Source: Candidatus Ventrenecus avicola | GTDB lineage: Bacteria; Bacillota_I; Bacilli_A; RF39; UBA660 | Assembly (NCBI GenBank): GCA_018711945.1 | Contig: DVHP01000013.1 | Location: forward strand, 1 to 37,482 | DNA: 37,482 nt | Direction of reading: 5' to 3' | The notes under the pieces: generated by a model | The model's database searches: none | Told to the model about the DNA's origin: nothing | The model's input: the letters and a program-made list of their open reading frames with translations, nothing else | Position numbers and translations under genes: made by a program | Part shown: one piece after another, positions 20,657 through 33,588 of the stretch | Position numbering within the stretch: position 1 is the stretch's first letter | How the letters are laid out: every line of letters begins with the position of its first letter

Positions 20657-20971
20657 TTAATCACTCGTACAACTACCAACATCCCAGATACAATTGAAAC
20701 ATCCCCAGAACTCACTTTCATTCCAAGCATCAACCCAACTGAAAATCAGGCTAATAAGTGCTGGTAAAAAGAAAATACATACACCCGCAATACAACGAAA
20801 GACTAAAGACTTCACTGCTTTCATTAAAGTATCTTCCTTACTACCAACAATTGCTTTAAACAAATCGATCATTCCAAAGCCAATAATGATAATTGGAATA
20901 AAGATTTTAGCAATTCGGACAATATGACCGATAAAAATAAAAGTACTACTAAGTCCAGAACAATAATCCAT
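20657..20971 (-). CDS. Two-TM VirB2/T4SS pilin-like protein
   Basis: IFIPIIIIGFGMIDLFKAIVGSKEDTLMKAVKSLVFRCIAGVCIFFLPALISLIFS + CFNCIWDVGSC tail; paralogue of five other ORFs here. Confidence 0.7.
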   Translation of the reverse strand: MDYCSGLSSTFIFIGHIVRIAKIFIPIIIIGFGMIDLFKAIVGSKEDTLMKAVKSLVFRCIAGVCIFFLPALISLIFSWVDAWNESEFWGCFNCIWDVGSCTSD

Positions 20972-21798
20972 TACTCACAACTCCTAACATTTAAAATACA
21001 CTTCTGACAAGCATCAAATTCCCCTTTTAAATTAGCCCAAGAAGAAATAAGGGAAAAAACCAAACTAACCAATGTAGGGATAAAGAAAATAATAACACCA
21101 GCTACAACACGGAACGCAAAAGACTTCGCTGCTTTTCTAATTTCATCATCTTTGGAACTCGTAATTGCTTTAAAGAAATCAACCATTCCTAAAGCAATAA
21201 TAATAAGTGGAATTAAAATCTTTACGACAAGCACAATATTACCGATAAATTGTAGGGGTTCTTTAAGTCTTCCACAAGTTTCAGAATCACTAACGGATGT
21301 GCTACCTCCAGTACTTGGAGTTGTACCAGAAACATCATTATCATCGCTACTACTTCCACTACCAGGAGCTTGACTTTGTTTATATAGATAAACTTCTCCA
21401 TTAGAAAGTGTAATAGACACACCAGCATTGATAATTGCTCCACGACTAGACAATTGATCAAAAGTATATCTTTCACAATCTCCTACAGCATTACAAAGAA
21501 CATAACGGCCAGAAGAATCATTATAATAAAACATTCTTGTTTGACCATTCAAAGAATTATTATAAAAGTCCTGTTCAACAGAATTAAAGGTATAAATGAC
21601 ATTATCATAAGCAATTTGCTGTGTCGTAAAGTTAAAAGTAACTCCACTTTGTCCTGGACGAACCTCAATACAGTTTCCACGACTTTCACATAACATATAA
21701 TTTCCACTAGAATTTTCATAATAAAATCCATCAGCATATGCAACAGGTAAAAATACCAAAAAAGCAACCGCCATAATGAGTAAATACTTCCATTTCAT
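20971..21798 (-). CDS. Secreted/exported T4SS pilin-like protein with duplicated Cys-containing ectodomain
   Basis: Signal peptide; repeats FYYENSSGNYMLCESRGNC / FYYNDSSGRYVLCNAVGDC; ILIPLIIIALGMVDFFKAITSSKDDEIRKAAKSFAFRVVAGVIIFFIPTLVSLVFS; CQKCILNVRSC. Confidence 0.7.
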   Translation of the reverse strand: MKWKYLLIMAVAFLVFLPVAYADGFYYENSSGNYMLCESRGNCIEVRPGQSGVTFNFTTQQIAYDNVIYTFNSVEQDFYNNSLNGQTRMFYYNDSSGRYVLCNAVGDCERYTFDQLSSRGAIINAGVSITLSNGEVYLYKQSQAPGSGSSSDDNDVSGTTPSTGGSTSVSDSETCGRLKEPLQFIGNIVLVVKILIPLIIIALGMVDFFKAITSSKDDEIRKAAKSFAFRVVAGVIIFFIPTLVSLVFSLISSWANLKGEFDACQKCILNVRSCE

Positions 21799-21800
21799 AT

Positions 21801-22292
21801 TTAATCCATCCCTTCAATTTTACAAGAATCACTACTACAAGAATTCACGTCACACTCTCCGTTTAACAAACATTCTGTACAACAACACCAGTTATTCGAA
21901 TAATCGCTCCACTCATTAACCATATTTAAAACAAGTTGAACAATTCCAGGAAGAAGGAAAATCGCAACTCCTGCAATTACTCGAATCATCAAAGACTTAA
22001 ATGCTTTCGTAAGACCATCATCTTTACTTGAAGTAATCGCTTTATAAAAATCCATAATTCCAAATCCTATAATCACTATCGGTATTATGATTTTTACAAA
22101 ATTTAAAAGTGTGCCTAAAAAGAGCATCGGCTTGCGATAGGAAGGATCAGCACAAATACTATCCACGGTAACTTCATCCCCTGCCAAAACTCGAATAGAT
22201 AAAGAAGAATCATATATTTCTGCTGCACTCACCTGACGAAATAATCCAAAAGATAAGAAAAGTGCAAAAGCTATAACAAACAATTTTTTCAT
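21801..22292 (-). CDS. T4SS pilin-like protein with Cys-rich tail
   Basis: MKKLFVIAFALFLSFGLFRQVSAA signal peptide; IIIPIVIIGFGIMDFYKAITSSKDDGLTKAFKSLMIRVIAGVAIFLLP; CCCTECLLNGECDVNSCSSDSC. Confidence 0.7.
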   Translation of the reverse strand: MKKLFVIAFALFLSFGLFRQVSAAEIYDSSLSIRVLAGDEVTVDSICADPSYRKPMLFLGTLLNFVKIIIPIVIIGFGIMDFYKAITSSKDDGLTKAFKSLMIRVIAGVAIFLLPGIVQLVLNMVNEWSDYSNNWCCCTECLLNGECDVNSCSSDSCKIEGMD

Positions 22293-22315
22293 CGTATCAC
22301 CAAACTTACATGTCA

Positions 22316-22344
22316 ATTATATCAATAAACAAGCAAAAAAACTA
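22316..22344 (-). promoter_or_regulatory. Putative promoter of 21801..22292 (leader copy A)
   Basis: Minus strand TAGTTT - 17 bp - TATAAT; same spacing as copy B at 33145-33173; weak -35. Confidence 0.45.
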
Positions 22345-22366
22345 GTGCATTTTACACTAGTCACAA
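22338..22366 (-). terminator. Rho-independent terminator (copy A) downstream of dnaI
   Basis: actagtg cattttа-type loop cactagt with U7 on the minus strand (plus: aaaaaaactagtgcattttacactagt). Confidence 0.65.
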
Positions 22367-22381
22367 AAAACCACTTAGAAA

Positions 22382-31483: not shown

Positions 31484-31533
31484 AATTCATCACTCTTACC
31501 TATCTAAAACACTTTTTAAAAATCACTAATAGC

Positions 31534-31562
31534 ATTATACAATATTTTTTTAAATACCTCAA
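31534..31562 (-). promoter_or_regulatory. Putative promoter upstream of 30980..31483/virB6/virB4
   Basis: Minus strand TTGAGG - 17 bp - TATAAT. Confidence 0.6.
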
Positions 31563-33118
31563 TCATTCTGTCCTGAAGTATCACACCCATCAATATCAAA
31601 CAAACAATTCCAACAATTATCAAAACTATTAGACTGTCCACCACCTATAATATTTTGAGCTGAATCATAAATAAAATTAATAATGCCAGGAAGCAAGAAA
31701 ATACCTACACCTATAACAACGCGAAGTGCAATGGCTTTAGCATACTTTTTCATATCCTCTTCTTTTCCTGAGGTAGTAATCATAAATAAATTCTTAATAC
31801 CAACAATAATAATAACAGCCGGAACTAAAACTTTGACAATGATAATAATGATCCCTACAGAACGCAATGTACTGGAAACATTAGAATTGCCACAAACGCC
31901 ACTTAAAGAAATATTACAATTATCACCATAGCAAACCTGTCCGGGATTATCAGTACCCTCAGGATTTGCTTCGCCTTCTTCTCCTTGCGTATATGAAGTA
32001 CCTTGCTGAGCCTCTTCTTCGTCCGTAGTTAAAACATATACACCTGCACCTATGCCGGCATCTTCATATACATAAAAGTTATTTCCAATACAAGAGTCTC
32101 CATAAAAATCATCAATACTTTGAGGTGATAGTGCAAAAGACATACCTCTTCCAGAGCTAGTATTTACAGTAACACTAACATCGGCATTACCAGTAAATCG
32201 ATAACTACAAGCTCTAGAATCCATTTCACTAGTCAAAACGCAGAATTCTCTTTGTCCATCCGGGTATGTCAACCAATAAAATGTCGCACCTTGAACTGCT
32301 GGCATAGCATTATTATTATAGTGACTAGCACATTCAATAGGATCTTCCTCTTGTTCAGGAGCGGTCTCTCCATATTCTTCCTCTTCAAGTTGAGAATTAA
32401 AAGTCGTTATTCCATCTCCGTAACCATTAACAGAAACTTGAAGCACATTGCCATCCCATACAAGATAAGGACAACGATTTCCGCTTTGTTCAAAAGCAGC
32501 CAAAACAGATCGTCTGGTTACATTAGATGATACGGTAGCAGCATTATTCGTATTTAACCCATAAATAGCAACATTATTTAATAATTGATTAAAATGTGTG
32601 TCCACAAAATCGCCATAACTATCATAATATAAATTTGTGTTATTCTCATCCTGTATTTCCAGCTGAAATCTCATATATGAAGATGTCGTATATGGAACTC
32701 TATAAGTACACCTTGCAAAAAAAGAATTGGAAGAATAAGATGTATCTTGATTTAAATAAGAATATGATGTCCGATTTCCAATATAACTTGTTAAATCATT
32801 TTCATTTGAACCAGCATATACATTATATCCCCAAAAACCATCTGTAACTAATACCATATTGGGACAACTAGATGTATTCAAACTACTCCAATTTTGAACA
32901 TCTTCCTTATTTCCTTTATTACCATTACCATTATGTTCCTTTCCATCAAATTTCTTAACAAAAGCTTTAACAGAATTGTCAGTGTAAATTTCTAAATAAA
33001 CAGTATCTCCTTCAGCTCCTCCATATTTACACTCAGTTGCTATATCTTTAGCTTGAACATATTCTAATCCTCCAAAAAACATAAATAAAAAACAAATACT
33101 ACCAACAATTTTTTTCAA
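31559..33118 (-). CDS. T4SS pilin-like protein with large Cys-containing ectodomain (TTG start)
   Basis: Signal peptide; about 400 aa ectodomain; VLVPAVIIIVGIKNLFMITTSGKEEDMKKYAKAIALRVVIGVGIFLLPGIINFIYD; CWNCLFDIDGC tail; GGTGAT RBS. Confidence 0.7.
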   Translation of the reverse strand: MKKIVGSICFLFMFFGGLEYVQAKDIATECKYGGAEGDTVYLEIYTDNSVKAFVKKFDGKEHNGNGNKGNKEDVQNWSSLNTSSCPNMVLVTDGFWGYNVYAGSNENDLTSYIGNRTSYSYLNQDTSYSSNSFFARCTYRVPYTTSSYMRFQLEIQDENNTNLYYDSYGDFVDTHFNQLLNNVAIYGLNTNNAATVSSNVTRRSVLAAFEQSGNRCPYLVWDGNVLQVSVNGYGDGITTFNSQLEEEEYGETAPEQEEDPIECASHYNNNAMPAVQGATFYWLTYPDGQREFCVLTSEMDSRACSYRFTGNADVSVTVNTSSGRGMSFALSPQSIDDFYGDSCIGNNFYVYEDAGIGAGVYVLTTDEEEAQQGTSYTQGEEGEANPEGTDNPGQVCYGDNCNISLSGVCGNSNVSSTLRSVGIIIIIVKVLVPAVIIIVGIKNLFMITTSGKEEDMKKYAKAIALRVVIGVGIFLLPGIINFIYDSAQNIIGGGQSNSFDNCWNCLFDIDGCDTSGQND

Positions 33119-33144
33119 TTTTTATCACCAAACTTTACTCCTTA

Positions 33145-33173
33145 AGTATATCAATAAAACCAAAAAAAAACTA
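33145..33173 (-). promoter_or_regulatory. Putative promoter of 31559..33118 (leader copy B)
   Basis: Minus strand TAGTTT - 17 bp - TATACT; matches copy A. Confidence 0.45.
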
Positions 33174-33192
33174 GTGCAATTTACACACTAGC
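33163..33192 (-). terminator. Rho-independent terminator (copy B) downstream of 33202..33588
   Basis: plus: aaaaaaaactagtgcaatttacacactag; stem with U tract on the minus strand. Confidence 0.65.
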
Positions 33193-33201
33193 CTATTTTA
33201 A

Positions 33202-33588
33202 TTAATTGCCCCATGCTTCTTCAGCATACATTCCACAGCCACCATCGTCGTTTGGACTTGTAATACATTGTCTACAAATAGCATAGTCATCAGCAGCTCC
33301 AGAACTAGAGAAATTAGAAATTAATCCCAACACTAATCCAACAATCGTTGGCAAGAAAAATATTACAACACCAGCAATCGCACGCATTGCAAGTGATTTT
33401 GTTGCCTTCTTAATTTCATCATCTTTCGAAGCAATAACAGCTTTTCCTAAATCAAGCATACCAAAAACAATTAACAAAATTGGAATAACGATTTTAAAAA
33501 CTAATAAAACATATCCAACAACCTGCCAAATATTTGCAGTTGTTGCACAAAATCCCATAGTCTCTGTTCCGACAATTGTTTCTCCCAT
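33202..33588 (-). CDS. T4SS pilin-like protein (no large ectodomain)
   Basis: IVIPILLIVFGMLDLGKAVIASKDDEIKKATKSLAMRAIAGVVIFFLPTIVGLVLG; CRQCITSPNDDGGC tail. Confidence 0.7.
   Translation of the reverse strand: MGETIVGTETMGFCATTANIWQVVGYVLLVFKIVIPILLIVFGMLDLGKAVIASKDDEIKKATKSLAMRAIAGVVIFFLPTIVGLVLGLISNFSSSGAADDYAICRQCITSPNDDGGCGMYAEEAWGN

What the first reader, a model, noticed from the sequence alone, without database searches (positions are those of the whole stretch)
20657..33588. Chromosomal type IV secretion-like locus with no recognised conjugation or DNA-processing genes
Seen: VirB4-type ATPase (two genes), PrgI-like protein, VirB6/TrbL-like polytopic protein and six pilin-like proteins in one minus-strand region. 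It sits between conserved housekeeping genes (ireB-ruvX-mltG block and pyk). Known: conjugative T4SS loci normally carry a relaxase and a VirD4/TcpA coupling ATPase; neither is recognisable here, nor are an integrase or flanking repeats. Inference: a domesticated T4SS-derived envelope machine (surface filament, DNA uptake, effector export or contact apparatus) in a Gram-positive-type lineage, not an ICE. This is the best candidate for an undescribed system in the window.
Basis: partly seen in the sequence, partly recalled or inferred. Interest (0 to 1): 0.85.

Follow-up and report, generated by a model that had tools for sequence, protein, structure and literature searches.

The report
Fixed chromosomal type IV secretion machine
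These uncultured gut bacteria carry, as a permanent part of their chromosome, a membrane transfer machine descended from DNA-transfer equipment; it bears an array of fast-changing surface pilin-like proteins and resembles the machine that tiny parasitic bacteria need to live on their hosts.

Summary
The cluster is real: six VirB2/T4SS_pilin-like proteins, VirB6, PrgI (VirB3) and a VirB4 split in two genes. It is one part of a fuller type IV secretion system (T4SS). No relaxase (PF03432) was found in the genome.

It is not a mobile element. VirB4 at 64-98% identity occurs in 127 of 146 genomes of the order, tracks FtsK divergence, co-occurs with VirD4 (126/1/6/13) and sits in a conserved neighbourhood. 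In 42 genomes Tad-pilus, T4SS and VirD4 genes form one supercluster; the window's genus has broken it up. True ICEs in the order carry a different VirB4 (~33%), a MobL relaxase and an integrase.

Closest relatives: Mycoplasma ICE VirB4 by sequence, the Patescibacteria T4SS by make-up. Pilin exodomains and the VirB6 C-terminus are hypervariable beside a 98%-identical VirB4. Most likely function (inferred): a contact-dependent translocator. Its VirB2-like pilins are reported for no other Gram-positive-type T4SS outside Patescibacteria. New variant of a known kind.

The parts
33202..33588 (-). pilA: 128-aa T4SS_pilin (VirB2-like) protein: Cys, TM helix 1, charged SKDDEIKKA loop, TM helix 2, CxxC...C tail
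   Evidence: PF18895 25.8 bits; four-Cys signature in 221 homologous domains; model mean pLDDT 85, two long helices 18-53 and 56-89
31559..33118 (-). pilB: 519-aa pilin-like protein: signal peptide, about 365-aa beta-rich exodomain, C-terminal pilin hairpin; exodomain hypervariable and swapped
30980..31483 (-). pilC: 167-aa exported pilin-like protein
   Evidence: PF18895 17.7 bits, below cut-off; synteny in other loci
28867..30966 (-). virB6: 699-aa polytopic VirB6/TrbL-like protein; conserved N-terminal half, hypervariable C-terminal region
   Evidence: PF04610 E=6e-4, NF045889 Mbov_0396 E=1e-4, identity profile
28544..28852 (-). prgI: 102-aa PrgI/VirB3-like membrane protein
   Evidence: PF12666 E=0.002; aligns to positions 2-96 of NF045975; 54-93% identity across loci
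27988..28557 (-). virB4N: N-terminal part of VirB4 as a separate gene (resembles the TrsD arrangement)
   Evidence: NF045975 positions 93-276 E=1.4e-15; overlaps prgI by 14 bases and virB4C by one
26204..27988 (-). virB4C: VirB4 ATPase (Walker A GASGSGKST)
   Evidence: PF19044, NF045975 E=4e-102, PDB 4ag5 E=3e-57; 127 of 146 order genomes at >=64%
21801..22316 (-). pilD: 171-aa exported pilin-like protein
   Evidence: PF18895 18.8 bits, below cut-off
20971..21798 (-). pilE: 275-aa exported pilin-like protein with an exodomain of about 150 aa
   Evidence: PF18895 21.3 bits, below cut-off
20657..20971 (-). pilF: 104-aa short pilin-like protein, conserved (91-93% in the two nearest loci)
   Evidence: no Pfam hit; aligns with the other pilins
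22382..25326 (-). dnaI, unknown 258-aa ORF and dnaB: housekeeping genes between the two pilin blocks; not part of the T4SS
   Evidence: DnaB_2 PF07261, AAA/IstB/DnaA-type hits; at this place only in the window and its two nearest relatives L009 and L010 among the loci fetched
25398..26060 (-). Fic-like protein with degenerate motif (QMFLDGNKR instead of HxFxxGN); probably not part of the T4SS
   Evidence: PF02661 E=1e-6; at this position only in the window, L009 and L010

Best explanation
The cluster is the membrane-translocon and pilin part of a chromosomally fixed, vertically inherited type IV secretion system of this order of reduced-genome gut Bacilli. VirB4 (two chains), PrgI and VirB6 form the inner-membrane motor and channel. 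A VirB1-like hydrolase opens the wall. VirD4 feeds substrate. Six VirB2-like pilins with extracytoplasmic Cys signatures, some with large variable exodomains, form or decorate a surface filament or tip; in most members a Tad pilus is encoded too, often in the same supercluster. SHOWN here by sequence: the components, their wide co-retention, the contiguous Tad-T4SS-VirD4 order in other genera, its break-up in the window's genus, and hypervariable exodomains beside a near-invariant motor. INFERRED: it works as a contact-dependent apparatus that binds neighbouring cells through the variable pilins and moves protein (or DNA, or nutrients) between cells, analogous to the Patescibacteria T4SS, rather than moving itself as a conjugative element.
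For: Core VirB4 in 127/146 genomes of the order at 64-98% identity. Elsewhere in the class only distant matches, 23-33%, in 12 sampled genomes. VirB4 identity tracks FtsK identity over 47 genomes (Spearman 0.72) and is always higher, mean 73 vs 56%. VirB4 and VirD4 co-retained: 126 both, 1 and 6 single, 13 neither, Fisher p=3e-13 without phylogenetic correction; the 13 genomes with neither lie in 13 genera, five of which (g33, g36, g50, g62, g81) also hold genomes with both. VirB4-VirD4 within 12 kb in 96 of 126, and TadA also within 25 kb in 42. VirD4 hits PF02534 E=1e-56 in a relative and CD1115 over cut-off in this genome. No PF03432 relaxase in this genome, 16/60 in the order. pilB exodomain 0-40% and VirB6 C-terminus 5-30% identical where VirB4C is 98%; exodomains swapped on a 73-76% conserved hairpin. 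Literature: RF39 genomes are reduced with many auxotrophies (PMC6784871); the Patescibacteria T4SS with six divergent VirB2-like pilins is essential for epibiotic growth (PMC12857230).
Against: No substrate, effector or partner cell is known; no expression data. No VirB8 was identified: the slot between VirB1 and VirD4 is filled by three families that no Pfam model explains. The VirB2 assignment of single pilins is below Pfam cut-off and the fold search was uninformative. The genome is a 77%-complete MAG, so an undetected relaxase is possible; MobL was not searched genome-wide. Hypervariability could reflect phage or immune pressure on any surface structure. The VirB4 tree neither shows nor rejects a single core clade (p-AU 0.34).
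Confidence: 0.6

Rival explanations
1. A DNA exchange or import machine: Tad pilus plus VirB4/VirB6/pilin act like the crenarchaeal Ups-Ced pair or Helicobacter ComB, bringing DNA in for repair, recombination or nucleotides.
For: Tad (type IV filament) genes are in one supercluster with the T4SS in 42 genomes; VirB4C matches CedD at E=2e-10, VirD4 matches CedB and CedD weakly; literature describes T4P-aided DNA import by Ced (PMC12102498, abstract of PMC11868833).
Against: ComEC is nearly universal (57/60) and kept in T4SS-less genomes G059, G096, G104 and G108, so a competence channel exists independently. A VirD4 of CD1115 conjugation type and a wall hydrolase are retained, which suggests export. 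Hypervariable pilin exodomains are not expected of a DNA receptor.
Confidence: 0.17
2. A conjugation system, resident but still used to move chromosomal DNA or to mobilise other elements in trans.
For: All parts are homologous to conjugation machinery (Mbov_0395/0396/0397 and CD1115 families); PF03432 relaxases occur in 16/60 genomes and could use it.
Against: No PF03432 relaxase in this genome and none conserved in the order. The locus is syntenic and its VirB4 tracks FtsK. Real ICEs coexist with their own VirB4, VirD4, MobL relaxase and integrase.
Confidence: 0.13
3. A surface filament only (adhesion or signalling): translocation lost, motor used to assemble pilins.
For: Pilin array and exodomain variation dominate the pattern of divergence.
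Against: VirD4, needed for substrate transfer and not for pilus assembly in studied systems (general T4SS knowledge), is retained as strictly as VirB4 and very conserved.
Confidence: 0.08
4. A decaying or ordinary ICE.
For: Homology to Mycoplasma ICE genes.
Against: VirB4 in 127/146 genomes spread over most genera of the order, conserved neighbourhood (rhodanese, DedA, RmuC), open frames without stops, no integrase in the window.
Confidence: 0.02

Closest known systems
Patescibacteria (Saccharimonadia) chromosomal T4SS (PMC12102498; reviewed in PMC12857230)
   Same: Chromosomal, usually relaxase-less, PrgI/VirB3, VirB4 with a separate N-terminal-like gene (TrsD), VirB6, arrays of divergent VirB2-like pilins (six in S. 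epibionticum), reduced-genome host with type IV pili
   Different: Different phylum (Bacilli, not Patescibacteria). VirB1-like hydrolase and VirD4 adjacent to virB4 in most genomes of the order, Tad pilus in the same supercluster, pilins fused to large exodomains. Whether the VirB4s form one clade could not be tested (no Patescibacteria sequences in hand)
Mycoplasma ICE (MICE) conjugation module, Mbov_0395/0396/0397 (NCBIfam NF045849, NF045889, NF045975); ICEA (PMC6030558)
   Same: Best family match for VirB4; PrgI + VirB4N + VirB4C map in order onto the single Mbov_0397 model; VirB6 and pilin-like proteins match its neighbours weakly
   Different: Three genes instead of one; fixed chromosomal place; no MICE integration genes seen at the locus; multiple pilins; scores below the equivalog cut-offs (342 vs 590)
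MPF_FATA conjugation systems, including Clostridium CD1110/CD1115-type
   Same: VirB1, VirB3, VirB4, VirB6 and VirD4 set of monoderm conjugation; VirD4 over the CD1115 cut-off
   Different: These lack VirB2 pilins according to PMC12102498 and PMC12857230 and carry relaxases
ICEs of the same order (L159, L174, L175)
   Same: VirB4 and VirD4 homologues, in the same hosts
   Different: VirB4 about 33% identical and unsplit (about 780-800 aa), MobL relaxase PF18555 (L174, L175), tyrosine integrase (L175)

Membership tests
Type IV secretion system (superfamily) | VirB4 ATPase | tested here: met
   NF045975 E=4e-102; PDB 4ag5 E=3e-57
Type IV secretion system (superfamily) | VirB6-like polytopic protein and VirB3/PrgI | tested here: met
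   Individually weak but consistent with NF045889/NF045975 and synteny in dozens of loci
Type IV secretion system (superfamily) | VirD4 coupling protein | tested here: met
   G000:C76, CD1115 family 285 bits over cut-off 250; encoded outside the window
Type IV secretion system (superfamily) | VirB8-like scaffold | tested here: inconclusive
   No Pfam match; slot proteins c9/c11/c14 unassigned
Type IV secretion system (superfamily) | VirB1-like wall hydrolase | tested here: met
   G000:C115 homologue of the hydrolase family next to virB4 in other genera; weak CHAP and C39 hits
Integrative and conjugative element | Relaxase encoded with or near the transfer genes | tested here: not met
   None in the window; PF03432 absent from G000, 16/60 in the order. 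MobL tested only in ICE control loci
Integrative and conjugative element | Integrase, att sites, sporadic distribution | tested here: not met
   No integrase in the window; 127/146 genomes; conserved neighbourhood. att repeats were not searched systematically
Patescibacteria-type T4SS | VirB2-like pilin array next to virB4 | tested here: met
   Six pilins here; 221 pilin domains in 59 loci, 1-8 per locus; VirB2 homology itself near or below cut-off
Patescibacteria-type T4SS | VirB4 inside the Patescibacteria clade | not tested
   No named Patescibacteria VirB4 could be fetched
Patescibacteria-type T4SS | Needed for growth on a bacterial host | not testable with these tools
   Needs culture
VirB2-type pilin | Two-helix hairpin with charged loop; pilus assembly | tested here: inconclusive
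   Hairpin predicted; no significant PDB fold match; assembly untestable here

The most novel reading that the evidence does not exclude
A composite Tad-pilus plus pilin-bearing T4SS that this order of reduced-genome gut bacteria uses to attach to and exchange material with specific partner cells, with the swapped exodomains setting partner specificity; a Bacilli counterpart of the machine Saccharibacteria need for life on their hosts.
Probability: 0.35. Interest if true: 0.92.

Novelty: new variant of a known kind. Interest (0 to 1): 0.76.

Why it matters
A 2025 review (PMC12857230) says VirB2-like pilins are known in Gram-positive-type T4SSs only in Patescibacteria, and asks whether Gram-positive T4SSs deliver anything but DNA. 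Here a whole order of common but uncultured gut Bacilli keeps such a system as core chromosome, with a motor more conserved than FtsK and a rapidly changing surface. The order is very probably RF39, noted for reduced genomes and auxotrophies. If it mediates cell contact it may help explain why these bacteria resist cultivation, and it offers a second, independent test of the 'T4SS for a dependent lifestyle' idea.

Tried and rejected
Two independent VirB4 genes: rejected, they are one protein split. Frameshift or assembly error: rejected, the split recurs in the related loci. Domesticated remnant without a coupling protein: rejected. Mobile element: rejected. Pyruvate kinase as vertical marker: unsuitable because of paralogues and patchy presence; FtsK used instead. 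Pilin fold search against PDB: no significant match. pilB exodomain: two hits at E<=0.001 but TM-scores near 0.1 and pTM 0.41, so no fold is claimed. The first VirB4 tree contained a wrong row and long branches; the rebuilt one does not settle whether the core VirB4s are one clade against two distant ICE sequences. PHROGs and PADLOC scans gave nothing beyond general ATPase kinship and a Fic-like match. Read but unhelpful for naming the order: PMC8035907 (relevant entry not in the held text).
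Full report
ANATOMY. The window is part of contig C56 of a 1.35-Mb, 144-contig, 77%-complete MAG whose nearest named relative is Candidatus Ventrenecus stercoripullorum. From memory and by its genome traits the order is RF39 (class Bacilli); the tools give only codes, so this is not proven here. On the minus strand after pyk come pilA, pilB, pilC, virB6, prgI, virB4N, virB4C, a Fic-like gene, dnaB, an unknown ORF, dnaI, pilD, pilE, pilF, then ireB-ruvX-mltG. 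prgI/virB4N overlap by 14 bases and virB4N/virB4C by one (TAATG).

WHAT THE GENES ARE. NCBIfam NF045975 (Mbov_0397 VirB4 of Mycoplasma ICEs) is 894 positions long; PrgI aligns to 2-96, VirB4N to 93-276 and VirB4C to 294-891. So the 'two VirB4 genes' are one VirB4, split, with PrgI in front, resembling the TrsD arrangement described for pGO1 and Patescibacteria (PMC12102498). VirB4C matches the solved VirB4 ATPase domain 4ag5 at E=3e-57. VirB6 matches Mbov_0396 and TrbL weakly; five of the six pilins match PF18895 near or below cut-off, pilF only by alignment with them. An HMM of the six pilins finds 221 domains in 59 of the 80 related loci (1-8 copies, median 3). Their shared signature is a Cys before helix 1 (212 of 218), helix 1, a KD-rich loop, helix 2 with a nearly invariant Pro, then CxxC (142 of 142 where those columns are filled) and a further Cys (213 of 220).

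NOT ONLY IN THE WINDOW. In other genera virB4C is followed by a membrane-anchored hydrolase (VirB1-like), a small variable membrane protein or lipoprotein, and a VirD4 coupling protein (PF02534 E=1e-56). Profiles of these find, in this very genome, VirD4 at C76:364-2574 and a VirB1-like protein at C115:8756-10969. Both lie near contig ends; in the sister genome G012 hydrolase, slot protein and VirD4 are contiguous (L135).

CONTIGUOUS LOCUS ELSEWHERE, BROKEN HERE. In G169, G138 and G087 one contiguous run reads CpaB-like, TadA ATPase, TadB, TadC, TadE (twice), TadZ, pilins, virB6, prgI, virB4N, virB4C, VirB1, slot protein, VirD4, rhodanese, DedA, RmuC (Flp-like pilins are seen in G169). VirB4-VirD4 lie within 12 kb in 96 of 126 genomes; 42 of these also have TadA within 25 kb of VirB4. 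In the window's genus, G014 keeps Tad-VirB1-slot-VirD4-rhodanese-RmuC together while the virB4 block is on another contig. In the window's own genome Tad sits beside RmuC and rhodanese on C103 (L169), VirB1/VirD4 on C115/C76, and the motor and pilins here, with dnaB-dnaI between two pilin blocks. That the contiguous order is the ancestral one is inferred from its wide occurrence. Tad genes are widespread (121/146) but their co-occurrence with VirB4 is looser (113/14/8/11).

NOT A MOBILE ELEMENT. VirB4 at 64-98% identity is in 127/146 order genomes. A class-wide sample finds, outside the order, only 23-33% matches, in 12 genomes. Over 47 genomes VirB4 identity to the window correlates with FtsK identity (Spearman 0.72) and is higher in every one (means 73 and 56%). 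Presence of VirB4 and VirD4 is tightly linked (126/1/6/13; p=3e-13, not phylogeny-corrected); the 13 genomes with neither fall in 13 genera, and five of those genera (g33, g36, g50, g62, g81) also contain genomes with both, which suggests repeated joint loss, though incomplete MAGs could contribute. As an internal control, true ICEs occur in the same order with a ~33% VirB4, a MobL relaxase and, in L175, an integrase.

SURFACE VARIATION. Against the two nearest relatives, VirB4C is 98%, PrgI 92-93%, housekeeping genes 80-98% identical. pilB exodomain windows are 0-40% while its pilin hairpin is 76-87%, and VirB6 falls from 53-86% in the first 360 residues to 5-30% in the last 220. Among 5.8 billion proteins only 23 pilB homologues were found, several 73-76% identical over the hairpin alone with a different N-terminal domain. 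The exodomain model is beta-rich at moderate confidence; no fold claim is made.

MECHANISM (inferred). VirB4 and VirD4 motors on a PrgI-VirB6 base, a wall hydrolase, and a surface array of Cys-rich pilins with exchangeable tips: most simply a contact-dependent translocator. The analogy is the Saccharibacteria T4SS, with six divergent VirB2-like pilins essential for epibiotic growth (PMC12857230, PMC12102498), in hosts that, like RF39 (PMC6784871), have reduced genomes. DNA import is the main rival; ComEC is near-universal and kept in T4SS-less genomes, which argues for a separate competence route but does not exclude it.

LITERATURE. Searches for T4SS with RF39 returned nothing relevant, and the passages found in the RF39 papers read do not mention a secretion system. 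The library is open-access only, so a prior description elsewhere is possible.

Noticed in passing
window 25398-26060: Fic-like protein whose motif reads QMFLDGNKR, with Gln at the place of the catalytic His; the two sister loci L009 and L010 share the Gln, and L010 reads GNKC. Weak PADLOC PDC-S04 match.
   Followed up: partly
L134 1116-2171 (G000:C6): Orphan 351-aa T4SS-DNA_transf protein (54 bits) next to a MerR-like regulator; similar partial matches in G012 and G013.
   Followed up: no
L169 13367-16753 and 16750-17541: 1128-aa and 263-aa proteins without a Pfam family at the head of the genome's Tad operon; both begin with signal-peptide-like stretches; tip adhesin candidates.
   Followed up: no
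cluster c3, e.g. L063 6652-8052: Collagen-like GPTGPTG repeat proteins near the T4SS in 19 of 80 loci, mostly on the opposite strand.
   Followed up: no
G191:C2:46622-47680: The TadA match is reported inside an open frame of 24,789 aa; giant gene or ambiguous sequence, not examined.
   Followed up: no
window 36451-37045: Two short ORFs, one with a weak DUF4143 match, look like remains of a broken DUF4143 ATPase gene.
   Followed up: no
L133 11005-11766, L136 7286-8077, L038 13951-14850: Three families (c14, c9, c11) that do not cluster with each other occupy the same slot between VirB1 and VirD4 in different genomes.
   Followed up: partly
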